From: Diadema setosum
Lineage: Eukaryota > Echinodermata > Echinoidea > Diadematoida > Diadematidae
Length of the DNA stretch: 64,000 bases
Assembly: GCF_964275005.1 (NCBI RefSeq)
Contig: NC_092692.1
Coordinates: 16,579,506-16,643,505 of the forward strand
Reading direction: 5' to 3'
Position numbers and translations under genes: made by a program
Notes under the pieces: generated by a model
Database searches by the model: none
Told to the model about the DNA's origin: nothing
Seen by the model: the letters and a program-made list of their open reading frames with translations, nothing else
Shown here: piece by piece, positions 13,491 through 49,157 of the stretch
Layout of the letters: every line of letters starts with the position of its first letter
How positions within the stretch are numbered: the stretch's first letter is position 1

Positions 13491-13491
13491 G

Positions 13492-14306
13492 TACTAGGTG
13501 TTACAAAAAACATGTCCCACTTTTGATCCGTAATAGTTAAAAAACTATAGATAATACTAACATTGATATGAGCAATATAGCTGAATAGTGTACAATTTTG
13601 TTGGAGTTAATTTGAAAATGAAAGCATTGCGCGGTTTCATTAAATTCAACATTAATTTTTCAGTTAGGTTTCAGATTCTGCTCTATTTTCAACCCTCTGT
13701 ACAAAACTTTAACTTTGCACGGAAGTCATTGGTGTGTATGGGAGTATGTAGTTGACACCCAGACAATGGTCCTGGACAATGGCCAGGATTGGAATGCTCT
13801 ATTACATATTCATGAGGAATTCCACAGTCACACCTAGTCTTTATTCATTCTGAAATGTGGTGTATGCAAGGGCACGGAAATATGTGCTTACTGTTTTCAT
13901 GGGCATGCATTTCATCCTTTGTCATGAATTCAGACTAGCAGTGCTCAGGGCAATCTGCATGAATAATTAATAAAGCATTCATGTGCCTTGGAGCAGAGCT
14001 CTGAACAGGTGTGAGCCATGTCCATTGTTCAGGGTCATTGTTAGCACACACTCACATACACATCATTGGTTCCTGTGTAAAGTTCAAGTGTTGTACAGAG
14101 GGTTAAAACTTGATCAACATCTAGAACTTAACATTGAAATAAATCGTGGATTTCATGAAACTATATAGGCATTCATATTCAAATCACCTCCAACTAAATT
14201 GTACACTATTCAGCTATTGCTGATATCAATGTCAGTTTTATCTGATGTATAGTATTTCAACTATTACGGATCAAAAGTGGGAAATGTGTTTTTGTAACAC
14301 CTAGTA
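13492..14306. mobile_element. Fold-back element, ~815 bp
   Basis: The termini TACTAGGTGTTACAAAAA and TTTTTGTAACACCTAGTA are inverted. The next ~200 bp of each arm also match (CCACTTTTGATCCGTAATAG with its inverse near 14262-14281, then TGTACACTATTCAGCT). Inner arms (CCCTCTGTACA / TTGTACAGAGGG) show that the palindrome spans most of the unit. No coding capacity. It is intergenic between RRS1 and sulfotransferase gene 1. Confidence 0.8.
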
Positions 14307-14329
14307 CATTGTCGTACTAAGTATCACCC

Positions 14330-15227: not shown

Positions 15228-16364
15228 TTGTATTTGAGAATCCTCAAAACGAATATTAACCAAAATGTCTCGACTGGAGTCGACCATTATAGATTTGCGC
15301 ATACTCTTCGCTGCATGTTTTTCACTGGCAGGCGCTTTTTGTGGTTTTCGAATATACCCCATGTGGGCAGCAAATGAAGATTTATTCAGTCGGGCCACCC
15401 GTGTTCCCCAGGTTTCTGGGCCTTTAATCGAAATTGATCAACATCTGAAAGTTCATAATCTTTACCATGTTATAGGCCTAGCCTATTTTGAGCAAACTTC
15501 TCGGCCACCGATCTGTATGACTGTAGAATGAATTTGAAACCCTACTATAAGCCTACAGTACTCTGTTTTTAGCTGCATTTGGGCGTATACGGCCTATGAT
15601 TTCCAGTCTAAATTGACAATTGAAGTCCAGCATCTTCGCTGAAGAGTCAAAATTTTGAAGGGCATTGTCTGTGGTCGTAAAAGCGGGCGTACTTGATAAT
15701 GTCTGAAGTTAGATTAAAACGACATCTCTATTACAAATGAACAATATGTATAATTTATAAACACATGCCTTAATAGCACTTTATAGACAGCAATAACACG
15801 ATTTTCTTCCTTGCGAACAAGATATAAATAGCGCCCTCAAAGGACCGATCAAACTTCATAGTGTGCACAACATCTCCATCTGTTGCGCGCCCTTTTATGC
15901 ATGCCTCGGCCGAATGAAAAGGCTCATACGGAGCATTGATATTGCCGCAGCACGATAAATTTAAAAGTAAATTCATTTGAATTCAAGTGAGAATATTTTC
16001 ACATTTTTGTGACCGAAAGGCAGAGAAATATAACAGCAAAACATCAAGGGCATTAACACGTGATGATTTGGAGAGGAGGGGCGGGGTGAGAATAAAAATG
16101 CTCTCCACAAAATATAGCTGTTATAGTGTAGGCACAATGTGCCATTCAGAGACATATCCCCGGGAATTGCTACTAGCGATCAGCCTAGTGACATCACATG
16201 ATTGTTAGCATTAGTTAATCATTAATGTTGTAAACAAGCCAAACATCTGCGACGATATAAAATAATATACATGATGGCAGTGTCTTATGTCATGTCCCAC
16301 CTGAACACGACATCACTTCGTAAGATGAGTTAATAAACACGACACCTTAATAATTCAGAGCAAT
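15228..16364 (+). promoter_or_regulatory. Upstream region of sulfotransferase gene 1, shared with gene 2
   Basis: About 1.1 kb is recognisably homologous to 37983-39589 upstream of gene 2. Shared blocks include GGCCACCCGTGTT, TAGCGCCCTCAAAGG, AACACGTGATGATT (E-box CACGTG) and CACCTGAACACGACATCACT next to the start codon. TATAAAAT at 16256-16263, about 100 bp before the ATG, is a candidate TATA box; gene 2 lacks it. The CRE-like site here reads TGACATCA. The open frame at 15265-15531 is not preserved in the duplicate and is not taken as a gene. Transcription start is inferred, not seen. Confidence 0.55.
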
Positions 16365-19300
16365 ATGGCCCCTCGTCTTCGATTCCGGTCCATAGCTGCT
16401 GGAGTTTGTGCAATTTGCACCATCCTGCTTGTGGGCTTTCTCAGTTACGATGGTGAGTATCAAAGCTATTTGCAAGGTATCGAGCAAACCATCCATTCAA
16501 TATTGACAACCGAAGTGGGTTGAACATGAGAACAAGCATTACAGTGCGTATCAAAGAAAAAAAAAATAGTAATCCATCTTTGGAGAGCTGCTGCACAGTG
16601 TATTTCATAATTGTTAGCTATGGAGAGCACAATGTTGGTTGTGGGGAATGAAGAACTCCACATGAAGGAAAAATGAGTGTCTTACTGAATGGATGAGATT
16701 TTCAATGAAAGTGGCCAAATGAATAGGCCAGCATGTACACATGCAGGTTTGTGTTTAGGTACATGTATTCTTTTAATATCTTATGGTCCATAACCTTTAA
16801 AAAAGGCTACCTGTCCGATAACTTGGTCACTCTCACAAAGGCCAACCCACACAGTCTATTCTTATCCATTCATACTCAACGCAGCTCGCAGCGACAAACC
16901 ATGTCTTGAATACGAATACAATGGATAATGGGTTACGTGTAGTTATCGTCAACATGGCCATGTTGAAGGTTATAGACCATTATTATATACAATGTTAGAA
17001 GAAACCCTAAACACAAACCTGCGGTCATGGAGGCTGGCTTGTTAATTTGACCACTACACCCTTCCATAGACAGATCTCTTCTATACGGTGAGATATTCAT
17101 TGTCCTTTCACCATAACACCCAAACTTGGAAAAAAGTGCACTTATATTGTCTCTGTTGTCTATAGTTCATGTGCTCAGTCATGCATGATGATAACAGTCC
17201 ACGTTGTTAGGTATCAATGGAAAGAGGAATAGTACCCTTTCCTCTCAAACAACATTGCGCTCTCCATGGCTGACAATTATGAAATAGTAGTCTTCCAAAA
17301 TAAGATCACCTTTCTTTATTAATACGTAATAGGGCATGATCCCTCGTGTTCTTTTTATAAATGAGAGACAAATATTTATATCGGATTATGTCTTCTCTCT
17401 GTCTGTTTTGTTGCGTAGGCCTACAACTGAAGCCGAAGTTCTTAGCGCAAACAATGAACCATAGACAAGGATAAAATGGGGGTGGAGAGGCATAAATTTA
17501 AGATGAAAGTGCAAGGTGCTTCAGGACTCCGAGCACAAACATAATAATTTTGCAAATTGGCTAGTAAAAATGCTGAATGAGGAGCAATGTTATACTTGTA
17601 CAGCGTTTATTTTGTTTGTTTTTGCTATTTTGGTCTGTTTATTTGTTTGGCCTTTTTTTCGAGGGGGTGTTTTTGCAGAAGTCAAACTGAGGTGAGGGAC
17701 TGCCATGAACGATTCTAATAATCCGTTAAATTTCGAGCCTCTCCCCGGGAAGTCAAATCGTTTGTTGGTAGTAAAGACAAATATTTTGGTGATAACATCA
17801 AGATTTGATATAACTTGGACATGTAAAAAGAAAAGACAAAATTAATGAAAAAAAAATGCATGTCCCATTATAAGACCAGCACCATTGGGCCTACATGACG
17901 TGTACTGCTGGTTAATGTTACATGAAGCAGAGAACACGTGATAGGGAAGAAAATAGTGAAACGTTACGTTATTATTATTCGATAATCAATACGTTCATTC
18001 TAACTGAGAAATTCATCGCAATGTTTATTGTAATCTCTGTATAGTAATTATGTGGAGAAGAACTTTATCAGCACTTGCACGAATATTTCTATGAACATTT
18101 CACACGATGAATTACTTAAACGCCACCTTTCCCTAAACACCAAAACGTGTACATGTATAACCTTGTGGGGAATAACGTACACGCCGTGTGTTGTCTATAC
18201 ACACCGCTTTTCAACCAGTGGGCCGCAATATTGGCCAAAAATGAAATAAAGATATTTATTCAGTCTTGGTCCTCAAGAAAACTTTTAGGAGACATAGTTC
18301 AATACAGGGACCGCAGACACGGGGGGGGGGGGGGGGTGGTGGTGGTGGTGGTTATATTAAATTAATCTTTGATCCCCATCGGTCTCAAGCCTCCCCCCCC
18401 CCCCACACACACACACACTAAAAATATTCCGTGGCCCCCGCAATACTACATCAGTTACCATAATATTCTCCTTTACAGATGCATATGGGACCTCGTTTGC
18501 AAGACACGTCTCCAGTGTTTGGACCACACCCAACATGCTCAAATCCGTCGTCCGGCCGCATACCAGGGTAATAAAGAGTAATTTTTCCCATAACAGCATA
18601 AGGTTCGTCCATAACCCTTTGTGTGCAATCGAGTCAGAATGTGCACAAATTTCACACAGGTACCACATAGGCAGTAAAAGAACGTTCGTACGCAGAGGGT
18701 TAAACGGTCCTAATTATTCGTGATATTGCACACGGTGCATATACGGTGACAGTATGTGTTAAGCAAGGGCACCTTTGAACATTGTTTTGGCTCAGTTTCA
18801 GAAATATTGTCTGGTTTATACTGACTCATGAGCTGTACAAGCGTGTAAACAACACTCCTGGATGCGGCACTAATTCGTAGTGACAAATAGATGTCTTCCT
18901 GACTTATTTCTTATTGTTTGTTTGTGTGTTTTTTTTTTTGCATGCGCAAAAGAAAAAAAAAACTACCCCTCAAAAAAGCAACAACTATGCTTAAAATCAA
19001 CGTCCAAAAGACTAAGCTTTTGCTTTTTTCATCAAAGTTCAATCCATCCACTTCGCCAATAGCTGCATTTGTTGATGGAATTAGAGTTAAATGAAACATG
19101 TACATGGAACGAAACCTGGTAGTTCACTGCTCAGGACTTCGAAAATTATATTTAAAAAGTTTGTTGTTCATCTATGTCTGCTCTCAAAAATGACACAAAT
19201 TCGTAATTTCGTAAGCACACAGTGCACATTCATTTGTTTCATCATAGATTTATCTATCATTCTTTATTATGGCCTCATTGACAGGGAGAAATAGAGGAAT

Positions 19301-25300: not shown

Positions 25301-28300
25301 GTAAAAAAAAAACCAAACAACTAATTTTATGCATTTCAAAATATTCGCATAATACAGAAACACCGATATATATTGATACATATTGAGATGTGGTTCTACA
25401 AAAATAAGTTCACAATAGAAAGCTACGTTATTGTAGGTCATAATGAATCTTTATTTTATGAGTTTAACGCATCAATATCATTAATTTGAACATTATTCTA
25501 GTAGCAGTCATGTTCAAGTGTGTTCAAGTACATTCATGATCAACTTCCACCATCTTTTGATATAACAGGTTCAGGTTTAACACTACTGTTACTCGCTCGT
25601 GTGGATAATATTCCATCTTGACGAAGTCCAAACCATTAGTAACGCACAAATTTATCACTCGTTCTGGTCCGGACATTTGGAATAATCTTCCAGACAACAT
25701 AGAGTCTTGTTCTATCTTTTACTTTTTAAAAGCTACACTTATGCTGTATTTAATAAAGCTATTATACTCCCCATTCTTGGAATGAATGCAATATATGCCT
25801 ATACCAGTTATTACTTTAACTGCATTCTGCACCCACACCTGCAACTGCACTGCACCCACTCAATTTCCTCCGTTCAAGAGAGTTGTGTCGCCGAATATGC
25901 TACCGAAAAACTAGGCTTGCAGTTCATCATGCTTACCTCACAAGACAAAGAGAGTCATTTCATGCACCTTCCACGTACTCGCACAGTCTTGATTGCTCTG
26001 TTTTCACCATGTTCACTGGACCCAAATTCTGAAATGATCTTCCCGCAGATTTAATCAATTATTCTCTGTTTATTTTCAAACAAAAACTCAAATTAATGCT
26101 ACTTTAATGAGTACAATTTGCCTGATTAGAATCATTTAACCTGTTATTTTACATTATCATCTTTCTTTGCACGGCGGATCAATTTTCAGTGTACGCTTGC
26201 TTTACCTCTGGTTTCAGCGTTTATGCTCCCATATAACCACTATACACTGGTACCCATACTTTGAACTCGTTATGACTTGATTGTAGATTATGCTCGTATC
26301 TCCTTGTGTATTGATGCCATTTTGTCACTCAGCTTTTTTCTTTTTTTTTCTTTTTTTTTCTTTCTCTTTTCTTTTACTTCTGCCCTTTGAAACCTCGCTA
26401 TTTTAGCTTTCATAATATAGTTTCGTTATTCATGTTATTAGTACTTTGTCTCCTCTCTCCATGGAAAAAAAAATCAATTGACATTAGTATTTTTTCCCCT
26501 TCAATCCGCGGTTACAAGCTTTGCTTTGCGGTTCCTTTATATTGCACATGTTATAGAGACATGGGAGAATTTTCTTTTGTGTACATATGCTGACACACTT
26601 TCTAGCCATGACCCATCTTTTGTTGTCATGATTATTATGTATCTTGCGTGTTTGTATTTTTGTATTTTGTATTTTTTGCTTAGTGTTGTAGATATCAAGT
26701 GAAATATGAAAATAAATGTGCTGGAACAGTTCACTCTATGTCGAGCGTGAGACCAGTCCAGTTTCCAGTAATTCAATTCAATATTCTTTTTATGAGGCCC
26801 CATCCATTTCCAATTTCACCGCTCATGGTGGCGGTCTCCTGCGTCAATACTCATATATACTGGAAGATACTTCCTATATAATTATCTCATTTATATGCTT
26901 CTATTATGTTTATGGCACAATACGTTTCCTTATGTTTATCTATTTGTGTGATATTTTGTTATTATCTTAATCATTTCATTTGATATTATTCTTTGTGTCT
27001 TACTTGAAATTTGTGTTGAATTCGTATTTATTTGATTGAATGCAGAAATTAACCAAACCAAACTAAACCAAACATGTATATGTTGAGGGATGGTATTGTC
27101 CCCCTGCCTTCTGAAAGAGGCAAGCCAAGTGCTCTTTCATTATCCTGTTGTATAGAAAGATGAAATCATGTGCAAATATCTGTTAGTGTTGTCCTCCTGT
27201 GACATTACGCATCGTTGTAATCTTCGAATCCAGCGATGACTGTACCGAAACGTCAAAAAAGCATAACAATAATACTCTTGAATGCAATGCCCGATTTTCC
27301 TCAAAGCACTTCACTACTGACATCAGGCGCTACTGCAAATACTCAATTTATATACATTAATTTTATATACACATGTAGGTTTCACTCCCCTCTATTTTAT
27401 CTTATTTCCACTCTGAGCCATGCGTCCGGAATTAATCAGTACGCATGGCTCAAGCCTTACAATTGATACAGCTGTACCGGATATAATGACTGGGGAAAGG
27501 GTTGAATTTCATGAATTTAGGGGCCCATTTTATAAATCGACTATTGCACAGGCCTTTTTTGTGGATCGTTGAGAATTGAGTGCTGTCGTTTATTGGTTTG
27601 GAACAGTCTAAAACTCACTCGCTGCGCTCGTGGGTGTAAACAAATCCAAAGTTAAACTCATGCATAAAAATGATTATTTTTATAATAATGGATATCGAAC
27701 AATTAACTTTTAATCAGAGACGTTGTACAGTGTACTTCATTTCATTTCGTTTATTTCCACTTACATCGTTGACTTTAAAGTTTGCATAAAAACAAACAAA
27801 CAAACAAGAATGCATGATATCAAATACAGTATTATAGTGGCGGAATCATGAGAAGCACAAGAATCGGCGCATTGAAAATGATCCCTAAACAAATACTATG
27901 ATGTACATATGTGTAATCATTTATAATCATATGTAATTGGATCAAATATGATTACAAACTATATATGCAATAAAATTCACAATGACTTTGAAATCAAGTC
28001 AAAGAACAAATCTGTACATTGTAAAAGAAAAGAAAACTCCATATTCAGCTATTCATCAAGTTGTAACTTAATTGTATAGAAAAAGGTGTTGTTTATAATA
28101 ATCTTCTAAATTGTCTTACGGTCTTACTGATCTCAAAAACTTAATTCAAATTATTCCATAAAACTGTACCTTTGTAAAATACCGACGCCTGCGTATAAGA
28201 TGTGCGATTTAATGGGAGATTGATGTTCTGCGCATTTCTGGTGTTATGATCACAGATTGAACTATTCAGGCTACAATAATTTGAGAATTCATTAGGAAGA

Positions 28301-29423
28301 AGGTTATTAAGTTCGTACATGAACTTTGCAGACTCTAATGAGATTACTCTACAGGGCCTACGAAAATACAGAGTAATTAAAGCACATAGTTATTTTTTTC
28401 TCTTCTCGTTCATAAAGAGGATTTCCTATTGCTCCTGTTCCAGAAAAGTGCGGTTCCAAAATTTCCTGCATGTACCCATGGTAACAATTTTTGGTACGAT
28501 TTTTTTTTTCTCATGACTCCCCTCAAACTTAACCGGTTTTCGTTTTCTTTGCCTAATATCTACAGAAGCCAGCCACGCTACCAGTAATTGTGGAAGATAC
28601 GCAGGCAGCTCGTCAGGAAACCTTGAGGCGTGAATGTTTACGGAGAAATATCAGCGCTTCCCCGCGACTCATCGAGGCTTGCGGCGAGTTCAGGGTGCTC
28701 CCGAGACACCGCACACTCCTTCTCCTCATTCCCAAGTGTGGCGGGACCAACTGGGCCAGACTTCTTCTCAGCATCTACGGATTTAAACGTCAAGACGCCA
28801 AAGTGAGCGCAATGGAAACTGTCAACTTGCTGAAGAGACGATTTAAGTTTCTGAAAAGCACGAGTGCACGCATGAAGAAATCGTATGCAGCAAAATATAG
28901 GAAAGTTATCTTCGTCCGGAATCCTTACACCCGTCTCCTGGCTGCGTTTAGAGATCGATTAGAAGCCTATCCGAATAGGAATCTAGTTCACCGTCGCACT
29001 CACAATAAGAAAATATACACAAAATATGGAAATCACTCTAAAGCAGAAATGCCCGGTCCGTCAGTAAAAAGTGAGATGTACAATGTCACCTTTAAAGAAT
29101 TCATCGACTATTTCCTAGCCGAGAATTACGATATTCACTGGGAAGATGTGTACAAGATCTGCAATCCTTGCCTCGGTTACGACTACATAGGAAGATTGGA
29201 GACGTACACCGAAGATGTTATTGAGGTGCTGAAGCTCATGGGTGTGGATTCTAAATTCTATCCGTACAATGCACTTGACGTTTCGAATAGCAGCGATGAC
29301 GCCATAATGAAAAAATACTATGACACGCTTTCTGATGAACAGTTTGAAAAAGTCAACCAAAGGCTTTTTGCTGACATGGCGTTTTTTGGCTACAAAATGC
29401 CCGAGAGCATACGGCGGCATTAA
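16365..29423 (+). CDS. Carbohydrate sulfotransferase (HNK-1/C4ST type), gene 1
   Basis: A Golgi enzyme by family, moving sulfate from PAPS to a glycan. Exons 16365-16452, 18479-18567 and 28566-29423 (stop TAA) give 344 aa, close to the 350-odd of human family members. Residues 11-26 are a hydrophobic signal-anchor after RLRFR, as in type II Golgi proteins. The catalytic domain (Sulfotransfer_2) shows the PAPS 5'-phosphosulfate loop IPKCGGTNW near residue 114, the 3'-phosphate motif FVRNPYTRLLAAFRDRL near 175, HWEDVYKICNPC near 250 and YDYIGRLE near 264. Asn-X-Ser/Thr sites occur at about 87, 215, 232 and 300. The loop reads CGG where vertebrate C4STs have VAC. The start is chosen because ATG and exon 1 are conserved in the duplicate. 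The acceptor sugar cannot be told. Intron 2 is 10 kb of transposons. Confidence 0.9.
16453..18478. other. Intron 1 of sulfotransferase gene 1
   Basis: The start and the part around 17480-18100 align with intron 1 of gene 2 (39678-41014). The middle (about 16700-17450) has no obvious counterpart. Poly-G followed by (GGT)n lies near 18320-18351, and poly-C with (CA)n near 18393-18418. The latter also occurs in gene 2, so it predates the duplication. No gene. Confidence 0.6.
18568..19300. other. Start of intron 2 of sulfotransferase gene 1
   Basis: The first part (to about 18960) resembles the start of intron 2 in gene 2 (41141-41400), for example the blocks around TTTTGGCTCAGTTTC and CTGACTTATTT/CTGACTTTTT. 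The remainder to 19300 shows nothing recognisable. Confidence 0.5.
19300..20520 (+). mobile_element. LINE 3' fragment (RT C-terminal region), split by a DNA element
   Basis: Forward translation near 19340-19450 gives LNRLHWLSVK followed by MLYKIVLLCYRAV, matching the LHWLPVxxRIxYKILLLxYKAL segment near the C-terminus of many non-LTR ORF2 proteins. Beyond the inserted element at 19557-20403, the segment from 20406 gives YGDRSF then FAVAAHSLRNLLP, matching the terminal YGDRAFSVAAPKLWNSLP motif. The reading frame is shifted and carries a poly-A expansion near 19380, so it is a dead, 5'-truncated copy. Clade is uncertain (CR1/L2/Rex-like). Confidence 0.75.
19557..20403. mobile_element. TA-flanked DNA element, 847 bp (pogo/mariner-like ends)
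   Basis: The ends CAGCACTCTCCGCGTAATCG (from 19557) and, inverted, CAGTACTCTCCGCATAATCG (ending 20403) match with two differences. They are flanked by TA on both sides (19555-19556, 20404-20405). A TA target and CAG ends are typical of Tc1/mariner-pogo relatives; family assignment is inference. Subterminal copies of AATCGGG(T/A) recur near both ends. No transposase was seen. It sits inside a LINE relic. Confidence 0.8.
20521..22550. other. Intron 2 of sulfotransferase gene 1, unidentified
   Basis: AT-rich sequence with many homopolymers. I see no exon, LINE motif or inverted repeat that I can support. The pyrimidine-rich character towards 22200-22550 could be the 5' part of the LINE that becomes recognisable further right. 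Confidence 0.4.
24452..24826. mobile_element. TTAA-flanked MITE (family C) inside LINE reverse transcriptase
   Basis: It runs from TTAAAGGGATGGTATAGAAT to TATGATCCCTTTAA. Joining the flanks at a single TTAA gives a continuous LINE reading ...KLSH-GIR...SFSWSKNHL, matching the family's KLEHYGIRG..LSWFKSYL, so the insertion duplicated TTAA. The interior has mirrored TCGGTTTTGGAATGGC and GGATATCTCAGCCATT. Relatives lie at 49995-50608 and 59943-61943. Confidence 0.85.
25121..25301. mobile_element. TA-flanked MITE, 181 bp
   Basis: It begins CAGTGGGCTTCGTTATAACG and ends CGTTATAACG-like sequence then GCACTG, flanked by TA on each side (25119-25120, 25302-25303). TTCGTTATA-type motifs recur inside. 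The ends suggest a pogo/mariner relative (inference). It lies inside the LINE relic after the KVSNWLKSKK block. Confidence 0.75.
25860..26110 (+). mobile_element. Second LINE C-terminal fragment
   Basis: Forward translation of about 25965-26107 gives HLPRTRT followed, in another frame, by TGPKF(stop)NDLPADLI and FKQKLKLMLL. This matches the terminal LPRTRTxxG...GPKFWNDLP motif of non-LTR ORF2 proteins with TGA in place of the TGG for Trp. As the preceding LINE already has its own GPDIWNNLP tail at 25670, this is a second copy or a partial duplication. Confidence 0.7.
26111..27090. other. Intron 2 continuation; probable LINE 3' tail
   Basis: Pyrimidine-rich DNA (26336-26380) followed by AT-rich sequence. 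The A-rich repeats ACCAAACCAAACTAAACCAAA near 27052-27073 look like a LINE 3' tail. No exon is supported. Confidence 0.45.
27091..27390. repeat. Partial copy of TTAA MITE family A
   Basis: AGAGGCAAGCCAAGTGCTCT, CCAGCGATGACTGTACC and GATTTTCCTCAAAGCA match parts of the element at 8948-9524. A corresponding segment sits in intron 2 of gene 2 at about 45165-45360, so the insertion predates the gene duplication. Confidence 0.65.
27720..28400 (-). mobile_element. LINE 3' fragment, minus strand
   Basis: Reverse translation of about 28330-28140 gives MYELNNLLPNEFSNY, then HNTRNAQNINLPLNRTSY and SVFYKGTVLWNNLN. This matches the C-terminal HNYNTRxxxxLHLPxxRTxxxxxSxxFxGxxxWNSLP block of non-LTR ORF2 proteins. 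The left part (27730-27800) is A/T-rich, as expected for the 3' UTR and tail. It ends about 165 bp before the catalytic exon of sulfotransferase gene 1. Confidence 0.75.
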
Positions 29424-29782
29424 TCAATTGTTAATAGTCTGTAAGGTATCCTGCAGGTTTTTGTTTAATCTTTCCTATCGTCATTAATTGAAGTATTACT
29501 CCACTTTGATAAAAACCATCCTTGCGAAGACCACAATTGTAGTTTACAATGAGTCAAAGTATGTATTGTTCTTCACATTATTTTGCTTTCAGTTTGAAGA
29601 ATGAAATTAAATCTGCCATGTGTGCCCGGTATATTCAGACTGATATAAGACTGGCCAGTATAAATACCATGTTTTACTTGAAATCAACAGGCATTATTAT
29701 ATAGAGTGTGCCACTTAATTCAATTTGTGTTAACCGAATTCAAATGGTAAATCAGTCGGTTGTGTTGAAGGGCTTCCAAGTG
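29424..29782. other. Downstream of sulfotransferase gene 1
   Basis: Presumed 3' UTR and intergenic DNA. It shows no convincing similarity to the sequence after gene 2, although the coding sequence right up to the stop is nearly identical. No clear AATAAA was seen. Confidence 0.5.
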
Positions 29783-31177
29783 CAGTGGCGTACCGTGGGT
29801 CAAGACATTGGGGGGGGGGCACCTCATGGCAGCAACATCAGAATTGCATAACGTAACAATTAAATGCGAGGGGCGAGCGGAGCGAGCGAGCTTGAAAATT
29901 TTGACATTATTTACAAACCCCAAACTGCCGTTTGTAGCTATATAATAATATATGTATATATATTGCTTTGGAAATTAAGGGGGTTGCACCGGGCGCAACT
30001 GCTGGCAGTTGCTGGCAGTAACATCGCGAGAATGGCATACCGATTAAATGCGAGTGAGCAAAGCGAGCGAGCTTGAAAATTTTGGCATTCTACAGTCCCA
30101 AAACTGCCGTTTGTAGCTATATTTTTTTCGCTTTGGAAATTAAGGGGAGGGGGCGCACCGGGCGCAACTGCTGGCAATTACTTACAGCAACATCAGGAGA
30201 CTTGCATAACGATTAAATGCGAGCGAGCGAGCTTGAAAATTTTGACATTTTGCAGTCCCCAAACTGCCGTTTGTAGCTATATTTTTTCGCTTTGGAAATT
30301 AAGGGGAGGGGACGCACCGGGCGCAACTACTGGCAATTACTGACAGCAGCATCAGGAGAATTGCATAACGATTAAATGCGAGCGAGCGAAGCGAGAGAGC
30401 TTGAAAATTTTGACATTTTACAGTCCAAAAACTGTCGTTTGTAGCTACATAATAATATTTTTTCGCTTTGGAGGGAGGGGGCGCCCGGTGCGCCCCCTGG
30501 ATCCGCCACTGGTAGTCAATGGTGTCGGTTTATGTTTATGATTGGGGGAGGTATGACCAGTGAGGGGGCGTCGAAGTGACCAAACGGGAGAAGGGTGTCC
30601 AAATCTGCACTTTATATAGAGCATCCCCTAATTTGTTTGTGTTTGTGAGTGTGTGGGTTTCATATAGATGGAAAAGTTAGGAAATAGCCAAGGTCAAGTC
30701 TTATTATTGGCAATGCAAGGCATTTTAATATAGACTAGCATGTAAAGCAACACTGCAAAATCAATGATCAAGCTTTGATAGCAAATGTGTACAACCTATC
30801 AAACATCACATTGCGCAACATTGCAGCGACTCTTTTTGCCATTCCGATGTTCTGAGTACACTGCTCACATCCTGCTTGTATTCAAAAAGCCAACCAGGAA
30901 TCACACTGAATCACAATCTTTTGTCGTCTCCGGGCTTTTTGAACAATGTTTCACTATAATACCTCTTTAATTATATGGTTAAAAGAAATCTTAGAAAAAA
31001 TATCTTTTTTCTTGATCATCCTTTCATGTCGATTTCAAAAGCAGTTTACTAACCCTTGAATTACCATTTTGGTAGGGTTTTTTCTTCTTTTTTTCTTCTT
31101 TTTTTTTAACCAGCGGATTGGGGGGCACGTGCCCCCCCCCCATGCCCCCCCCCCCCCCCCCCGTAGTTACGCCACTG
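29783..31177. mobile_element. Inverted-repeat element (CAGTGGCGTA ends) with internal ~170-bp tandem repeats
   Basis: The ends CAGTGGCGTA (29783-29792) and TACGCCACTG (31168-31177) are perfect inverse matches. Four tandem units (starting about 29844, 30032, 30202 and 30361) each contain a GATTAAATGCGAG phrase, CTTGAAAATTTTG and AAACTGCCGTTTGTAGCT. The subterminal DNA is extremely G- or C-rich. An internal end-like sequence GGATCCGCCACTGG at about 30499-30512 suggests a nested or composite copy. No coding capacity. Confidence 0.65.
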
Positions 31178-31738
31178 TGCAAGTGGTATGATTACTCAGT
31201 TTGTTCCATTCACATTTAGCTGGAATCGACTGGTATATTTCACAATTTGCCAGTTCATTCCAATGGTTTCATGGTATATACTGGAAAGAACTGGTCCAGA
31301 ATGTGAATCAGTAAGTTCCAGCTGAAACCAGTTGAAAAAAAAATGACACATTAGATATCAGTGTTGGGTCAAATGGATTCAAACTGTGACCCGTTAATTC
31401 CAGTTGATACCATTAAACATTCCAAGTGGCTTCAACTGTTTCTTGACCCTAATATCAATGTAACATAAAAGTTATGTCTTTTTTGAGAAAAGCATGGTCA
31501 ATAATAAAGTGGAGTAAAAGGGACCTAAAACACTTAAGCCTACACATCTTACTCTTACTCGTAGCTTACTGGTTTGATGATGTACGAAAATATACGTTGT
31601 ATGGTCGGGAACATCAATTCTTATAAATACACCATATTCACGCCGGCAGTAGCTTTTATGCGATTAATCTTTTTGAAAAGTTAATGACACCTTAGCTGAT
31701 GTCAGTCTGCTGGAAACATTGACTTAACTATGGCATAA
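31178..31738. other. Intergenic, nothing recognised
   Basis: AT-rich. Several approximate repeats of CCAGTTGATACCA / TTCCAGCTGAAACCAG occur at about 31200-31430. No gene. Confidence 0.45.
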
Positions 31739-31867
31739 CAGGCCCGTAGTCAGGATTTTTCAAGGGGGGGGGGGGTGCGGTCACTAAAAAAACGGACCTT
31801 TGGTACCAATACCAATGATGACACACACACACACACACACACACACACCCACACACACACACACAAT

Positions 31868-31908
<41 letters not shown>

Positions 31909-34574
31909 TTTGGACGACCGAACTACAAAAGTTGTATAAGAATTTGCGCGCATAGCGCGCCGCAAATTGTGAATTTTGACTGTTTTAATGACGTTTTAAA
32001 GTCTCGAGGAAATTTGTATTTTTGTCTGTTGCATGCAATCGCGTTACGGTATTTCATCTAGGAAATAGTAAAAACTCATTTTGCCAGGAAGTTGCAAAGT
32101 TTAATTGTGTTCGAGACTCTGCGCGCGTAGCGCGCCGCAAAATTGAGAATAGTGATTTTCCTGGTGTTGTTTTAACTTTTATTTTTTCTATTGTATACCC
32201 GCGTTAGCAGGCCTCAAGCCTGGTATGCGAGTTTGTCAAAAACGAAAATAAATAAGAAAAATTTTAAAACAAAATGAATTGTAAATGTGAACCATTTATA
32301 TTTTGCCTCCTTGTGGTAGGATATTTCCAGCATTTCCGAACTTTCAAATAATCATTTTAGATTTAATAATATTAAAGGTAGTAGATCCGATTCGCAAACA
32401 TCTCCAATATCAGTCAAATGTCATATTAACCATCATGCTAGGAAGGTTTTCTTTGTGAAATTTGGAGGTCAGTGAAATTCAAAAATTAAACATCCGTTAG
32501 CCATTGGAAGAAGTTGAGTGCAAATTCAGACCTCAGGCTTAATGCTCAGATGTTTTCCTATTTGATTTGATCTGTCTTACTGTGCACACTAAGATACATA
32601 CTGGAATGGTTATTTCTTATTTATTAAATTATAGTAGCATATTTGGTTACCAGCTGTCTCTAGGCATTTTCGAATTTGGGCTGCAAAGAGATCCACTACC
32701 TTTAAGTTAGAAGAGAGATAAGTAAATAATGATAAGATAAACAAACAAAAAAGAATGAGTTTCTTTTGTAATACTATCTGACAAACTTTTTACTTTACCA
32801 TTTTACTTCATAGCTCAGCACTTTCCATTCTCTCTCATACCCTCTTACCCATTACATTTAAATGAAATACAACTAAAATGAGTTTGCGTACCTGCATAAT
32901 TTGGAAATTATAAGTGAAAATGTTCTTAGGTTTTGGCTCACTTTAAAATGAGAACCAATAGAACTGTCACAATATGAGAAAATGTATAAGTAATAATCAA
33001 CACTACATTTCCGAATTTGGCCTGCAAGAAATCCGCTACCTGTAAGTTAGAAAAGAGATTAGTAAATAATGATAAAATAAACAACAAAAAAGAATGAGTT
33101 TCTACCGCCGTATCCAGAACAAAGCCTGAAACGGTGCAGGCTCAAGAAATCGTTTGTACTATAATACGTCTTGAAGTATTGTGTGATACTGTTGACTCAG
33201 ACTTCTACAAAGCTTTAAGTGAGAATTGTAATCCAATCCGACTCATTACCTGAGATATTTATGAAAATATATCAATAAAGAATGTAAATTAAATAACGTT
33301 GCGTCACAATGCAGTCTAACGCTCTCACAATGCTATCATACATAGGGTTTTTCACTGACTGTTTTTACTCCGGAGCTCTTGCAATATTCAGGCTTTTGTA
33401 ATACTATCTGACAAACTTTTTACTTTACCATTTTACTTCATAGCTCAGCATTCTCTCTCATACCCTTTTACCCATTACATTTAAATGAAATACAACTAAA
33501 TTTAGTTTGCGTGCCTGCATAATACTCTTTGGAAATTATAAGTGAGAATGTTCTTAGGTTTTGGCTCACTTCAAAATGAGAACCAATCGAACTGTCACAA
33601 CATGAGAAAATGTATAACTAATAATTTGTTGGAACCGTAAGCAAATGCCAGCTGAAGGCGAGTAGGCAAGTGTGTTTAAAAGCATTAGATTATGCACGGA
33701 GGTCGTACAGTTACTTGATAGATGATCTTTTCTCGAATATTGGTACTAGCAAAAGGGCTAGAAAAATCAGCTATTATGATTCGTTAGGCATGCATAATGG
33801 CCCAATGAGTGTTACAAGAGAACTGGAGTAAGACAGGTCTTTCATTTTGTTTTGTCTCTCCTGATCGTTCGTAAGAAATGCTAATTCATGACCACCTTTT
33901 CACAATTTGATTGGAGCATGCATTCATATAATGGAAAATAGTTGACATAACAATCTATCCCCAGGCTTATCATGCCAACATGTACTTATATATACATGTA
34001 CTATATCTTTGTGAGACGTAGATATAATATGTCTCAGGTTTTCGATTATAGTAATTTCGAGGAAATTTCTTTAATTTTTATCATATATGTAAACTTGAGG
34101 CTATTAGATTTTCAACCACTTACCTCTGTTCCTGTGAAAAAATGCAAGTGTCAACCTCAATGTCATCCACGAATCGCACGTACTCGGGCGGCCAGTGGGA
34201 AAAAAAAAACAACAACAACAACAACAAAACACCGGTCACACGCGCCAAGGGCCATGGCATGCAGTGCCAATATAATAATAGCTCGCACAAATTGATACAT
34301 AACATTTGTGTTTGTGTGCATGGGGACGATCCGATGGTTCATACAACAAAAGGGTTTCGTACAATTATTTTTAACATTGTTAAACGTACTCTTCCACATT
34401 TACGTAGCATAGGCCTATAATGTCTGGTGTCTTTATATTTATTTGGATTGTTATCTTGAGAATTGCTAAAAACAGTCATTATGAAAAAGTGGACCTTTCA
34501 GATTTTTTTTTTTTTGGGGGGGGGGGGGTGCGTACGCACCCGACGCACCCCCCCCCCCCCCGGCTACGGGCCTG
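31739..34574. mobile_element. 2.8-kb inverted-repeat element with 5-bp target duplication
   Basis: The ends CAGGCCCGTAG (31739-31749) and CTACGGGCCTG (34564-34574) are perfect inverse matches, flanked by CATAA on both sides (31734-31738, 34575-34579). Subterminal G-rich and GTGGACCTTT/CGGACCTTTGG sequences are shared by both ends. Inside are (CA)n and (TA)n at 31818-31906 and two copies of a GCGCGC(A/G)TAGCGCGCCGCAAA phrase at about 31948 and 32118. A ~320-bp tandem duplication (about 32660-32998 and 33005-33635) has its second unit interrupted by ~290 bp (33103-33393). No transposase was recognised. It landed in or beside a LINE relic. Confidence 0.75.
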
Positions 34575-39589: not shown

Positions 39590-40886
39590 ATGGCCCCTCG
39601 TCTTCGATTCCGGTCCATAGCTGTTGGAGTTTGTGCAATTTGCGCCATCCTGTTTGTGGGATTTCTCAGTTGCGAGGGTGAGTATGAAAACTATTCTCAA
39701 GATTTCGGCCAAGCCATCCATGCAATATTGAACAACCGACGTTGTGTGAATAGGTTGGAAACAAGCAATATAGGGCACGATCTACATGTGTCTTCATGTT
39801 CTTTTTATAAGGCTTAAGAGAGAAATTGATATTGTCTGCTTGAAACTTTCTCGTTTCTGTCGGAGTTTATAGATTAAATTATATATCGAAGCGCTTTTTT
39901 TTTTTAGCACAAGCAGTAAACCACCGATAAGGAGATCATGTTTTTGTTGTTGTTGTTGTTGTTGTTGTTTTTTTTTTTTTTGGGGGGGGGGTGCATAGAT
40001 TTCAGATTTAAATGCAAGGTGCTTCAGTTGACAGAATTAACATGAACGTTTTCTTGATTTTCTCCTTTTTTTTTGGGGGGGGGGAGAGGGAGGGGGTATT
40101 TTTGCAGAAGTCCAACTCAAGTGAGGAAATGCCCTTAACGATTTAAGATAATGCGTTAAACTTAAAACATCTACCCGGGAACTCATGCAATTAGTTTGTT
40201 GGTAGTGGAGACAGAAATAAATATTTGGATGATAATGCCCAGATTTGACATAACTTCGGTCATCTAAAAAAGTCTTAAAGAGTGAAAAATGAATGTCCCA
40301 TGTATAAGACTTGCAACATTAGGCTTCTTATACAAATTGTGGGTGCATTAAGGTTTTTTGTTGTTGCTGTTTGTTGTTTTTTTTTGATCATTGGAAACAA
40401 ATAGGGAAGAACTCGTAAAACGTTACATTATCATATTTCGATAATCAATGATCATGTTCGTCATCAGTGAGTAATTTGTAGCAATGCTTATTGTAATCCC
40501 TCTATACATATTAGTATGTGAGGAAGAACCAATTGTTTAATCGAACGTTCTAAAAACAGTCTACCGCACGATGAGTTCACTTAAACCCAGTCATTTACTA
40601 TACAGTAGGACCTACAACTTGTATAACCTTTGAATAGCGTGTATGACCCCGCTTCTCAACCAGTGGGCCGCGATGTCGGCCAAAAATGAAATAGAAAAGA
40701 CTCATATTTAATGTTACTGGGCCTCAAAAAAAAAATTGTAGGCGCCAAAGATGGCCTCGGGTTGGAAAAGTTTGAGAAGCGCATGCATGGTCTGTGACAT
40801 AGTTCAATTCAGGGACCGCGAAACGGGGTGTGGAGGGGGGGGGGGGATGGGGCTATTATAGCAATCTTTGACGCCATCGGCCCAAT

Positions 40887-40934
<48 letters not shown>

Positions 40935-43900
40935 ACACACTGAAAACGTTCCGGGGCCCCTTCAATGCTACATCTATCAGGTATAATACTGTATTACATA
41001 ATTATCCTTTACAGATGCATATGGGACCTCGTTTGTAAGGCACGTCTCCAGTCATGCAACTGCCAGTGTTAATCGGACTACACCCAAACCTGTCATCCAG
41101 CCCTGTACCAAGGAAGTAAAGAACAATGTCACTTTTCCCGTAAGTGCATAAACATTGTGTTTCGTCCATTTAACGATCCTATAGTGATAATATCATGTTG
41201 CACATTGTGCGTGCTGTGACAGCATGTATAGCCCTAAAGATATACCTTTTAACATTTTTGGCTCAGTTTCCGAACATAACTGTCAAGTTTTTGTACTGAC
41301 ACATGAGCTGAGATGGGATGTGTAAACATGGACAACACTCAAGGACACGACAGTCTGTAATGACATTAAATACATGTTTCCTGACTTTTTTTTTTTTGCA
41401 TGGGAAAAAGTGCCTTATTATGATACCGAAAACACTTATAGAAGTAGTGTATTGTACGTCCATTTAGCACGGGAGAACACGTTACTAATGTTGGCATTCA
41501 TGTTCCAGATTAGTGTATTTAATTTAGCACTGTCTCATTTCATTTCATTTCATTTCATTCATTTATTTAAGCACGGCAACATACTTCATTTCGGAGACTG
41601 TTCTTTCGCAGGCCCGTGCGGATGAAATACAACATAAATATACATTATCAGAAATGAAAAACAAAACTCATACATACTTCATTTCGGAGATTGTTCTTCC
41701 GCAGGTCAGTGCGGATAAAATACAACATAGATGCACATGTATCAGAAATGAAAAACAAAAATTCATACAAAAGAAAAAACAACGAAACATAGAAAACAGA
41801 CTACCATGGTGATGAAACTATGGCACACATCTCGACAAAAACATGATCAATCAAAGATAACCATGTACAATTCCTTAAGTACATCGCGGTAGTTTAAAAT
41901 GAAAGAGACGAACACAAAGGAGAGTTCAGGAGAAAGAGAGAGAGACAGAACATAATACTATTTAACAAGTGAACAGTATCATATACAAATAAATTTCAGA
42001 TTTAAATGCAAGGTGCTTCAGGTGACAGAATTACACAAACGTTTTCTTGATTTTTCTCCTTTTTTTTTGGGGGGGGGGGGGGAGGGGGTATTTTTGCAGA
42101 AGTCCAACTCAAGTGAGGAAATGCCCTTAACGATTTAAGATAATGCGTTAAACTTAAAACATCTACCCGGGAACTCATTCAATTAGTTTGTTGGTAGTGG
42201 AGACAGAAATAAATATTTGGATGATAATGCCCAGATTTGATATGACTTCGGTCATCTAAAAAAAAGTCTTAAAGAATGAAAAAATGCATGTCCAATTTAC
42301 AAGACCTGCAAAATTAGGCTTATTATACAAATTGTGGGTGCATTAAGTTTTTTGTTTTGTTTTGATCATTGGAAACAAATAGGGAAGAACTCGTAAAATG
42401 TTGCATTATTGTATTTCGATAATCAATGATCATGTTCGTCATCAGTGAGATGCACATGTATCAGAAATGAAAAACAAAAATTCATACAAAAGAAAAAACA
42501 ACGAAACATAGAAAACAGACTAACATGGTGATGAAACTATGGCACACATCTCGACTAATACATGATCAATCAAAGATAACCATGTACAATTCCATAAGTA
42601 CATCGCGGTAGTTTAAAATGAAAGAGAGAGAGAGAGAGAGACAGAACATAATACTGTTTAACAAAATGAACAGTATCATATACAAATAAAATGATTTCAT
42701 TTTATATTACTGATTTAAAAATTCGTTTCTTTTATTGTTGTATTTTTTCATTATATTTCGCTTTTCTGGTTTCTTCACTTTTATGTTCGAAAGTTTTCTC
42801 TGATATGAGACAGCGCGGTGCTACGTTTTCCGAAGTGAGGGGCCGACTTTATGGAAGCAGGGACTTCGATTCGTTTTTTTATGATGGGAGTGGGGGGGGG
42901 GATTTGCTGTCACATCTCTTCTGCGAAAAAATAGAGGAGGCGGGCCCCCACCCCTCTTTCTCCGGTAAAGGTGGCCCTGTCAGATCCAACAATATTGTTA
43001 AAGTTCTCCTGTTTATTTTCGAGATTCCATTAAAAAATTGTGTTTACACGTTTATCCCAAACGGCAGAATATGTGATATTTCATTTATAGTCTCTCTCTC
43101 TCTCTCTCTCTCTGTAATAGTCAAAGAGCCTATTACAATCATATATTGTTTACATCCTATGACCTATCTCTTTGGTTTATATACTGTACATGTTGACACG
43201 CTTGAAATTGAAAAAGATTGTGTAAATGACATTGAAATGACCATACACGAAAATGCGTTATGAAAGAAAATGTATAAAGATAAAAGATTAAAAAAGATAT
43301 TTGAATTCAGCAGAAAGAAAGATTTATTTGACATACACATATCGAGTAGTAAAAAAACAAAAAGAAAAAAAAAACAAAAACAACAACAACCCGGAGAACC
43401 TCGCTCCTTCACCGGCAGTCGTTATTTCCTCATTTTTGCCCCATTCAACAACAACAACAACAACAACAGCAATGTTATGGTTATTTGGCCACTTTATAGA
43501 CCAATGAAATGAATGACCCCGTAAAAAGAAAACTAAATCATTACGTGGAAGAATGTAGAAGCATGAGATAGCTATAAAAACAATTATACCAATGCAGAGA
43601 CTCCAACCCAAAGCACCTTCTGATCTGGAGATTCTCCCGCCTGAAACCCCTAGCAAACGGGAGACTCGAACTTGATGTGTGCGAAGCGCGAAGTTCCTAG
43701 GGTTCTAGATGCTCTCTTGTGCTATCTAAGGCTTATTTTTTCAACATACGATAGAAATAAGTAAGAAATCCCTTCCAACGGGAGACAAACAGCCGGGGCG
43801 GGAGAAATTAGATCTCAAACGGGAGAACGGGAGATTTTGCAAAAATGGGTTTTCGGCGGGAGATCTCCCGTCGAAAACGGGAGAGTTGGAGTCTCTGCCA

Positions 43901-46766
43901 ATGGAACACCTGCCAACTTGGCCTAACTGAATGCAAAAGTTGTACTGCAGTACGGGCTTCAGAGCGACGTCGATGGTTGTATTCCACCTCCCTGGTTGCA
44001 CTTTGTGCGATCGAATTCGTATACGTCTATTGGCGACTGGCAACTTTAGCTGTCCTTTGATAAATTTCAATGACTATTTTTTGCTGACCTCTCCACGAAA
44101 TTGAATGACTTATTTATGCTCTTTCATGAACTGTGTGCAAAATTGAATGACCTATACAAAGTAGATACTTTTCATGCTTTTGCGCACAACAAAGCGCAGA
44201 ATTGAAACTAGACCTAGTTTCCAATGACATTGTTCTTCAAAATGTGAATTGAATTAGGAACAGAAGAAAACCGGAACAACAATTTTATTGCGAGTGGACT
44301 TTGGAACGCAAATACGAATACCAGAGCGACTGAAGCTGTAATAGGAATGGAATGGGTGTGTCGGGTTATTCATTATCTTGTGAACTTTAAAAATGAGTAT
44401 ATTTACAAATGTATTTCTGTTTATGATCATCATAACTATTGGTTTTTACCCCCCCCCCCCAAAAAAAAAAAAAAAAAAATAACTGATTCAAAAAAGATCT
44501 GAATTAATCAGCTGAAAGAACTTTCTCGGTCTCTCCAGCTCCTCAACAATTATTTTTGCATCGGCATTATCAAGCTGAATGTAAGGAGGCTTTGTATGAG
44601 AGACCTTGAGTACCTACTGAAATTTAGTTTTAGTGTCTATCACTGTACCAAGATATCTATACTCACAAACCTAATCAATGCGATTGCTTAAATGTAGAAT
44701 TAATGGTGCATACTTTATAGGTTCACTGTTTTATGATAATTTATGATGATTATCATACTGTAGATCGAATTTTTATTACACTACTGCTTCATTGACGTAA
44801 TCAAAAAAAAAAAAAAAAATGTCCTTCCATCATTTACACTCCAGGAACTAATTTGATATGCTTTGTCTTGTATATCTATGTTGTTATTTTTTCTGAAGAC
44901 AACTTTTTTTTTTCCAAATTACCATTTTTTTTTTTCTTTTCTGAGCATTTTAGCCTTGCTTCAATTTACTCTGACAAATCTTAAGGCGTAATCGTATGTT
45001 ATCTTATTATTTGTTCCAATCAGTAACGCACGAGTTGGAAAATTATATAAACTCTTGGAAAGTTGCTTATTAACCTATGATCAACCGATGGTTCAAATAT
45101 TACATAAAAGAAAAAGGAAAAGTACGGACTCTTCCACTTCTTTACTGACTTATCATGTTGAGGGATAATTGTCCTCCTGTGACAACATTCATTATCTCAA
45201 TTTCTAAATCCATCGATGGCTGTATTATACCGAAACTTCTAAAAATCTTAACTTTTGAACGCATGTACGCAATATATGATTTTCCTCTAACTCCACTTCT
45301 GTGCTCTCAGCAGATATTACTGCAAACACCCAATTCACATTATTCATGCAGGTTTAATTTTTTCTTGTCTGTTTCATTTTTTCCTAATAAAGAATGCTTT
45401 TTGGCATTATGTTTTAGGGGCCCCAAAAGTGGTCCGGCACGTTATGATTACGTGATACTTTTGTGGCCTTCGGTATTTGAAGTGTTTTAAAGGGCAATTC
45501 TATATTATAGATAGTGATCCTTAATATTTATTTAAAGCAAAATAAAATTCAACAACAACAAAATAGTATGAAAGTGGTTTTTATCTCAACCAATTCTAAA
45601 TTCAGACCGGTGTATGAATAATTTTCACGTGTTATTATCAATAGCATGCTATCTTTAACATTATTACATACTGTACAAGACTAGTCGAATAGATCTTAAC
45701 ATGAAAACTGTGCATAACTGCATTGCCACAATAATTCTGTGAACTCAAGATGGCCGCCGTTTCACTAAGGTTGATAGTCACGTAGCAGCGACCCCAGTTG
45801 CAAAAAAAAAAAAAAAAAAAAAATCAAAGAATGGTGATCTCATGCTGGCCTCACAAGCCTTAGTCCGTTAAAACTCCACTTTTATTTTTTTATCCTTCAT
45901 ATTAATAGAACCCAACCACGCTACCAGTGATTGTTGAAGATACTCAGGCAGCACGTCAGGAGACCCTGCGACGTGAATGTTTACGGAAAAACACCAGTGC
46001 TTCCCGGCGGCTTGTGGAGGCTTGCGGCGAGTTCAGAGTCCTTCCGAAACAACGAACACTCCTTCTCCTCATTCCTAAATGTGGGGGCACGAACTGGGGC
46101 AGACTTCTGCTCAGCATTTACGGATTTAAACGTCAAGACGCCAAAGTGAGCGCACAGGAAACTGTCAACCTGTTGAAGAAACGATTCAAGTTTCTGAAGA
46201 GCATCAGTGAACGCGTGAAGAAATCGTACGCAGCCCAGTATAAGAAAGTTATCTTCGTCCGGAATCCTTACACCCGTCTCCTGGCTGCGTTTAGAGATCG
46301 ATTAGAAGCCTATCCGAATAGGAATCTATATCACCGTCGCACTCACAATAAGAAAATATACACAAAATATGGAAATCATTCTAAAGCAGAAATGCCCGGT
46401 CCGTCAGTAAAAAGTGAGATGTACAATGTCACCTTTAAAGAATTCATCGACTATTTCCTAGCCAAGAATTACGACATTCATTGGGAAGATGTGTACAAGA
46501 TCTGCAATCCTTGCCTTGGTTACGACTACATAGGAAGATTGGAGATGTACACCGAAGATGTTATTGAGGTGCTGAAGCTCATGGGTGTGGATTCTAAATT
46601 CTATCCGTACAAGGCACTTGACGTTTCGAATAGCAGCGATGACGCCATAATGAAAAAATACTATGACACGCTTTCTGATGAACAGTTTGAAAAAGTCAAC
46701 CAAAGGCTTTCTGCGGACATGGCGTATTTTGGCTACAAAATGCCTGAGAGCATACGGCGGCATTAA
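39590..46766 (+). CDS. Carbohydrate sulfotransferase (HNK-1/C4ST type), gene 2
   Basis: Tandem paralogue of the gene at 16365-29423, with the same three-exon structure: 39590-39677, 41015-41139 (or a donor at 41115) and 45909-46766 (TAA). Both donors keep phase 0; CCC|GTAAGT at 41139 is the stronger and gives 356 aa, the other 348 aa. Exon 1 encodes the same RLRFR-led hydrophobic anchor. Exon 2 is longer than in gene 1, with possible N-glycosylation sites NRT and, for the long form, NVT. The catalytic exon keeps IPKCGGTNW, FVRNPYTRLLAAFRDRL, HWEDVYKICNPC and YDYIGRLE. No stop or frame break interrupts the three exons, so it looks functional. Intron 2 (4.8 kb) is half the length of gene 1's. 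The acceptor glycan is unknown. Confidence 0.9.
39678..41014. other. Intron 1 of sulfotransferase gene 2
   Basis: It aligns in parts with intron 1 of gene 1. It contains (GTT)n with poly-T/poly-G (39942-39991) and a long poly-C/(CA)n tract (40890-40940). The segment 39999-40471 is present a second time in intron 2 at 41993-42449. Confidence 0.7.
41510..41760. repeat. Tandem ~95-bp duplication after (TTTCA)n
   Basis: Repeats of CATTT (41518-41560) precede two copies of a unit beginning ATACTTCATTTCGGAGA, at about 41580 and 41673. Both contain CGCAGG(C/T)C(C/A)GTGCGGAT, TACAACATA and AATGAAAAACAAAA. It lies in intron 2 of gene 2. Confidence 0.65.
41730..42690. repeat. Intron-1 segment re-inserted into intron 2 between direct duplicates
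   Basis: A block R at 41730-41993 recurs as R' at 42450-42690 with few differences (GATGCACATGTATCAG ... CAGTATCATATACAAATAAA). Between them, 41993-42449 is a near-copy of intron-1 sequence 39999-40471, in the same orientation, from ATTTCAGATTTAAATGCAAG to CATGTTCGTCATCAGTGAG. It is non-coding. Confidence 0.85.
42691..43590. other. Intron 2 of gene 2, unidentified sequence
   Basis: A 190-codon open frame (42691-43263) lies here, but it has no recognisable domain. It spans a poly-G tract and a (TC)n microsatellite (43090-43113) and lies inside an intron, so I do not call it a gene. (CAA)n tracts occur near 43380 and 43448. Confidence 0.5.
43594..43898. mobile_element. Inverted-repeat MITE with GCAGAGACTCCAAC ends
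   Basis: GCAGAGACTCCAAC at 43594 is mirrored by GTTGGAGTCTCTGC ending at 43898, flanked by CAAT on both sides. The interior repeats the palindromic phrase CGGGAGA/TCTCCCG at least eight times. 305 bp, non-coding, in intron 2 of gene 2. Confidence 0.8.
43900..45908. other. Intron 2 of gene 2, remainder
   Basis: GAAATTGAATGAC-type motifs at 44098-44160 recall the subterminal motifs of the 36131-37460 element. A partial family A MITE lies at about 45165-45360. Homopolymers occur at 44450, 44803 and 45800. The acceptor TTAATAG precedes exon 3 at 45909. Confidence 0.5.
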
Positions 46767-49140: not shown

Positions 49141-49157
49141 CTCAAACTGTTCAGATC

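What the first reader, a model, noticed from the sequence alone, without database searches (positions are those of the whole stretch)
28911..29423. Sharp identity step in the two sulfotransferase catalytic exons suggests gene conversion
Aligned by eye, the first ~335 bp of exon 3 (28572-28910 against 45915-46247) differ at roughly 47 sites (about 14%), many synonymous. The last ~513 bp (28911-29423 against 46248-46766) differ at only about 13 (about 2.5%). After the stop codon similarity vanishes. A tract that starts inside an exon and ends at the stop fits a recent conversion between paralogues. It homogenised the 3'-phosphate-binding and acceptor part while the PAPS 5'-loop part kept diverging.
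Basis: partly seen in the sequence, partly recalled or inferred. Interest (0 to 1): 0.72.

Follow-up and report, generated by a model that had tools for sequence, protein, structure and literature searches.

The report
Partly homogenised tandem sulfotransferase gene pair
Two neighbouring copies of an old sulfotransferase gene differ a lot except in the last 60% of their main exon, which is almost identical, most simply because one copy's end was later overwritten by the other's (gene conversion), an ordinary process.

Summary
Exon 3 of two tandem three-exon Sulfotransfer_2 genes differs at 48 of 339 sites before 28911 and 13 of 513 after. The best step is at 28901 (28896-28916). Silent divergence falls from 31 of 81 sites (dS 0.54) to 6 of 102 (0.06), and amino-acid divergence falls too; 0 of 2000 shuffles match the step. 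Seven still-alignable noncoding blocks differ by 0.20-0.35 (middle gap setting), so the pair is old and the 3' part is the anomaly. Interlocus gene conversion is the best reading (0.8).

Corrections: "ends at the stop" is only where alignment ends; the last 56 bp (4 differences) may lie outside the tract. A second low-divergence island (leader plus exon 1, 8 of 148; exon 1 silent 1 of 23 but nonsynonymous 5 of 64) shows uneven divergence elsewhere and weakens a single-event story.

Donor, direction and species grouping are untested: no relative was found in the collections scanned and the own-genome search did not complete (8 tries). Assembly error and silent-site constraint remain possible. 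Interest is low.

The parts
28901..29423 (+). Low-divergence (homogenised) 3' part of exon 3, gene A; 13 differences in 523 bp; the 3' edge may lie near 29364
46244..46766 (+). The same tract in gene B
28566..28900 (+). Old-divergence 5' part of exon 3, gene A (49 of 335 differences; silent 31 of 81 counted over 28572-28910)
45909..46243 (+). Old-divergence 5' part of exon 3, gene B
28716..28754 (+). LLLLIPKCGGTNW, PAPS 5'-phosphosulfate-loop-like motif, upstream of the step (motif name recalled)
   Evidence: read from translation
28902..28949 (+). KVIFVRNPYTRLLAAF, 3'-phosphate-binding-like motif, starting at the step (motif name recalled)
   Evidence: read from translation
16365..16452 (+). 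Gene A exon 1: start codon and hydrophobic N-terminal segment
18479..18567 (+). Gene A exon 2 (89 bp; donor GTAATA)
39590..39677 (+). Gene B exon 1
41015..41139 (+). Gene B exon 2 (125 bp; donor GTAAGT)
16292..16446 (+). Second low-divergence island between the copies: leader plus most of exon 1, 8 of 148 (two gap settings); 16292-16418, 5 of 120 with the loosest
27189..27384 (+). Alignable block of intron 2, p 0.23-0.30 by gap setting, a neutral yardstick near exon 3

Best explanation
An old tandem duplication made two same-strand, three-exon Sulfotransfer_2 genes (catalytic exons 17 kb apart, start codons 23 kb apart). Much later a nonallelic (interlocus) gene conversion copied about 465-525 bp of the 3' part of exon 3 from one copy, or from an unseen third copy, into the other. 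Shown: the step, its position, and the greater divergence of the surrounding DNA. Inferred: the conversion itself, that it was one event, and its mechanism. Not known: donor and direction.
For: An about nine-fold drop in dS and four-fold drop in dN at the same point. One-step fit at 28901 beyond all 2000 shuffles. Seven alignable noncoding blocks of the same pair at p 0.20-0.35 with the middle gap setting (0.17-0.35 with the loosest), against 0.059 at silent sites of the tract; chance of 6 or fewer of 102 is 6e-5 at p 0.20 and 1e-3 at p 0.165. No stop-free alternative frame across the tract (tested on copy A) and no unusual RNA folding (copy B, z -0.31), so no visible second function that would freeze silent sites. 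The tract ends at or before the loss of homology, as expected if homology limits the exchange. Tract length lies inside the range reported for C. elegans paralogues (12-2,958 bp, mean 117; PMC3966223 section 4.1, read).
Against: Only two sequences: no outgroup, so no phylogenetic test. Exon 1 (silent 1 of 23, nonsynonymous 5 of 64) is another exonic region with low silent divergence, which could mean constraint rather than conversion. About 14% divergence upstream of the step is high for efficient exchange (recalled general knowledge). The tract is longer than the 50-200 bp towards which surviving tracts cluster in that review.
Confidence: 0.8

Rival explanations
1. Assembly artefact: reads of one copy's 3' exon, perhaps from the other haplotype, were placed or polished into the other locus, so the tract is one locus seen twice.
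For: Two near-identical 0.5 kb stretches 17 kb apart are easy to mix; 2.5% residual differences could be allelic in a very polymorphic animal (inference, not measured; the host is not known).
Against: The flanks of the two tracts are quite different and the window holds no N. The 13 differences are spread along the tract; 7 are nonsynonymous and alter 6 residues.
Confidence: 0.08
2. Strong constraint on silent sites (splicing, RNA structure or another coded product) in the 3' part, without exchange.
For: Exon 1 has low silent divergence too (1 of 23) while its nonsynonymous divergence (5 of 64) is no lower than in the 5' part of exon 3; a leader and short exon may be constrained.
Against: In the tract nonsynonymous divergence falls as well; no open alternative frame spans it (copy A); folding z -0.31 (copy B); no Rfam match in the window; a step inside about 20 bp is abrupt for constraint.
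Confidence: 0.07
3. Reverse polarity: the pair is young (3' part and exon 1 show its true age) and the 5' part of exon 3 of one copy was imported from a more distant third paralogue.
For: Silent divergence of exon 1 and of the exon 3 3' part agree (1 of 23 and 6 of 102, p = 1.0), and the 5' part of exon 3 has the highest silent value of the three.
Against: Alignable introns and upstream DNA differ by 0.17-0.35 depending on gap setting, with many indels; intron 2 near exon 3 (46 of 160) agrees with the 5' part (31 of 81, p = 0.15), not with the 3' part.
Confidence: 0.04
4. Unequal crossing-over inside exon 3 rather than conversion.
For: Same-strand tandem copies allow it.
Against: Crossing-over would carry the downstream flank along; the two 3' flanks share no detectable homology over the 4 kb compared.
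Confidence: 0.01

Closest known systems
Interlocus gene conversion between GOT1 paralogues of Tigriopus californicus (PMC3728101, passages read)
   Same: Exchange largely confined to exons while a large intron became unalignable (its GOT1Sd/GOT1Sr pair); divergence peaks inside an exon of a tightly linked pair (its GOT1p1/GOT1p2 pair).
   Different: There several populations were sequenced and compared; here only one genome's two copies.
Caenorhabditis paralogue conversions such as fog-2/ftr-1 and col-12/col-13 (PMC3966223, passages, section 4.1)
   Same: High identity in coding parts with diverged flanks (col-12/col-13).
   Different: Surviving tracts are said there to aggregate towards 50-200 bp; this one is about 465-525 bp. 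Orthologues confirmed the col-12/col-13 case.
Sulfotransfer_2 (PF03567) carbohydrate sulfotransferases
   Same: Both catalytic exons match the profile over positions 2-252 of 252 (E 4.5e-35 and 1.3e-33).
   Different: Copy A finds only chance matches among sequences of solved structures (best E 0.41; copy B not searched); acceptor unknown.

Membership tests
Interlocus gene conversion | Abrupt change of silent divergence inside a homologous unit, beyond chance | tested here: met
Interlocus gene conversion | Surrounding DNA of the pair more diverged than the tract | tested here: met
   seven noncoding blocks 0.20-0.35 (middle gap setting), exon 2 12 of 80 aligned plus indels; 5' exon 3 silent 0.38 and tract 0.059. 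The exception is the leader/exon 1 island
Interlocus gene conversion | Flanking markers not exchanged on either side | tested here: inconclusive
   5' side: old divergence. 3' side: no homology to compare
Interlocus gene conversion | Paralogues group by species in the tract only | not testable with these tools
   no relatives found with copy B's exon 3 as query; own-genome search did not complete
Interlocus gene conversion | GENECONV-type test | not tested
   GENECONV was not run; with two sequences there are no third-sequence sites to condition on. Shuffle and breakpoint tests used instead
Sulfotransfer_2 (PF03567) | Full-length profile match above gathering score | tested here: met
   122.4 and 117.7 bits, cut-off 22, profile 2-252 of 252
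Sulfotransfer_2 (PF03567) | Sulfotransferase fold | not testable with these tools
   structure prediction not accepted

The most novel reading that the evidence does not exclude
Exchange between the copies was templated by a spliced transcript or its cDNA: the two low-divergence islands are the leader plus exon 1 (best right edge 6 bp before the end of exon 1) and the end of exon 3, the introns are untouched, and exon 2 and the old 5' part of exon 3 lie between as unconverted stretches.
Probability: 0.04. Interest if true: 0.5.

Novelty: new member of a known kind. Interest (0 to 1): 0.2.

Why it matters
It is a clean worked example of how one exon can hold two molecular clocks: a date from the 3' part would make this pair look several times younger than a date from the 5' part. 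For the enzyme, the half from the 3'-phosphate-binding-like motif onward was kept nearly the same in both copies, while the 5'-loop half drifted under purifying selection (dN/dS about 0.13). Nothing about the mechanism is new.

Tried and rejected
Third copy in the window: none seen; the best further protein match has E 0.77. Extra short conversion in the 5' part (36 bp identical run 28776-28811): not significant, 12% of 5000 shuffles. Overlapping reading frame across the tract (copy A): none free of stops apart from the gene's own. RNA structure (copy B): tract z -0.31, 5' part z 0.84. Rfam: no match at gathering scores in the window. Different mutation type: transitions to transversions 28:21 and 8:5 in the two parts, no contrast. 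Relatives of copy B's exon 3 in viral and prokaryote collections: 0 of 7 and 0 of 22 pattern matches confirmed. Solved structures (copy A): chance matches only, best E 0.41. Pfam on 10 of the 34 open frames of 100 aa or more (the two catalytic frames went into; the rest not scanned): nothing above a gathering score. Papers: seven searches ran. Judged from titles and abstract beginnings of the rows shown (15 of 47, 2 of 2, 1 of 1, 8 of 8, 5 of 5, 1 of 1, 8 of 27), none reports conversion in a Sulfotransfer_2 pair. The closest, PMC9526060 (passages), names gene conversion for sulfatase and nag genes and only counts sulfotransferases. PMC13228809 (passages) names carbohydrate sulfotransferases among expanded families of sea cucumbers and high heterozygosity there; not used, as the host is unknown. 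In one search gene A's exon 1 was started one base early, so its translation was out of frame; corrected.

Full report
What is there. The window holds no N and carries two same-strand copies of one gene. Gene A has exons 16365-16452, 18479-18567 and 28566-29423; gene B has exons 39590-39677, 41015-41139 and 45909-46766. Spliced, they read 344 and 356 codons without an internal stop, 88% identical. Splicing is read from the sequence and from conservation between the copies; no transcript was seen. Exon 1 encodes a hydrophobic N-terminal segment (from the sequence; no membrane predictor was run). The catalytic exon matches Pfam Sulfotransfer_2 over positions 2-252 of 252 in both copies. The host was not identified; gene structure and repeat content suggest an animal (inference).

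The observation. Over 852 ungapped positions of exon 3 there are 61 differences: 48 of 339 before 28911 and 13 of 513 from there on. Silent differences are 31 of 81.0 and 6 of 101.8 sites; nonsynonymous 17 of 258 and 7 of 408. Four-fold sites alone: 15 of 48 and 3 of 59 (p = 5e-4). A one-step model beats a uniform one by 22.0 log units (0 of 2000 shuffles; maximum 10.4), and by 18.9 for silent codons alone (maximum of 2000 shuffles 11.3).

The edges. The 5' edge lies directly before the codons for KVIFVRNPYTRLLAAF, which looks like the 3'-phosphate-binding motif; the 5'-loop-like LLLLIPKCGGTNW lies upstream (motif names recalled). The 3' edge is unresolved. No homology was found past the stop (29424-33500 against 46767-51000; 300 bp global alignment no better than shuffled), so the tract may simply run to the end of alignable sequence. 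A free scan prefers 28901-29364 (9 of 464 differences), and the last 56 bp hold 4 differences (post hoc p = 0.04), but a two-state model with preset rates keeps them in the low state at 0.92-0.94.

Which part is odd? A step alone does not say whether the 3' part is too similar or the 5' part too different. The noncoding DNA of the same pair answers this. Seven blocks that still align (upstream, both ends of intron 1, four places in intron 2) differ by 0.20-0.35 of aligned columns with a middle gap setting; with the loosest setting the lowest is 0.17, and indels are many. These blocks were chosen because they align, so they probably understate the age. Intron 2 near exon 3 (0.30 and 0.35 with the middle setting; the first falls to 0.23 with the loosest) agrees with the silent value of the 5' part: 31 of 81 versus 46 of 160 (the latter), p = 0.15. 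The tract's 6 of 102 would have probability 6e-5 at a rate of 0.20 and 1e-3 at 0.165. The 3' part is the anomaly.

The leader and exon 1 form a second low island. With the middle gap setting it is 16292-16446, 8 of 148 differences against 151 of 749 around it (1 of 1000 shuffles); with the strictest, the same island against 172 of 755 (0 of 1000); with the loosest, 16292-16418, 5 of 120 against 141 of 769 (8 of 1000). Exon 1 silent differences are 1 of 23, lower than the 5' part of exon 3 (p = 0.0016) and like the tract (p = 1.0). Its nonsynonymous differences, however, are 5 of 64, no lower than in the 5' part of exon 3, so unlike the tract it does not show both classes falling together. The 66 aligned leader columns of the island hold 4 differences. 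Constraint is a good explanation there; a second, older conversion is another. Exon 2 differs at 12 of 80 aligned columns plus indels. So silent divergence varies along this pair in more than one place, which lowers my confidence that a single event explains everything.

Mechanism. Conversion between the copies (or from a third copy) explains why silent and replacement differences fall together in the tract, why the change is abrupt inside an exon, and why it stops at or before the point where homology stops. Unequal crossing-over would have carried the downstream flank along, which is not seen. A frozen silent code has no visible cause: no second open frame (copy A), ordinary folding (copy B), no Rfam match. 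Misassembly cannot be excluded without reads; the different flanks and the 7 nonsynonymous differences (6 residues) spread along the tract speak against a simple double use of one locus. If silent sites keep time, the exchange is about one ninth as old as the divergence in the 5' part (0.061 against 0.535).

Known context. In C. elegans paralogues tracts range from 12 to 2,958 bp (mean 117 over 7,829 pairs), and surviving Caenorhabditis tracts tend towards 50-200 bp (PMC3966223, section 4.1 read). In a copepod, exchange between GOT1Sd and GOT1Sr is largely confined to exons while a large intron is unalignable, and in the linked GOT1p1/GOT1p2 pair divergence peaks stay inside an exon (PMC3728101, passages read). 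That paper quotes the view that such peaks can mark selection to differ; here the diverged part has dN/dS about 0.13, so nothing points to positive selection. The nematode review warns that high coding identity with diverged flanks can also reflect a young partial duplication (passages); here homology continues upstream through parts of intron 2, exon 2, intron 1 and the promoter side, which argues against a young partial copy.

Limits. No relative was found in the collections that could be scanned, which hold viruses and prokaryotes. The own-genome search was tried 8 times without an answer.

Verdict. It is most likely a plain case of interlocus gene conversion; interest is low to modest.

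Noticed in passing
16292-16446 (against gene B about 39524-39671): Second low-divergence island between the copies: leader plus exon 1, 8 of 148 differences, exon 1 silent 1 of 23 but nonsynonymous 5 of 64; constraint or a second conversion.
   Followed up: partly
18479-18567 and 41015-41139: Exon 2 differs in length (89 and 125 bp, both keeping the frame). Gene B's GTAAGT donor has no counterpart in A by eye; A seems to use an upstream GTAATA, shortening the stem of the protein.
   Followed up: partly
39995-40471 with 41989-42449, and 41729-41993 with 42448-42690: Local direct duplications inside gene B (90% and 88% identity); in the first, a stretch of intron 1 is repeated in intron 2.
   Followed up: no
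3661-4173, 8947-9525, 13489-14309: Long palindromic self-matches (71-83% identity), perhaps inverted-repeat mobile elements.
   Followed up: no
7785-8697, 29965-30447, 60915-61600: Tandem arrays with periods 424, 159 and 159 bp; the second begins about 540 bp after gene A's stop codon.
   Followed up: no
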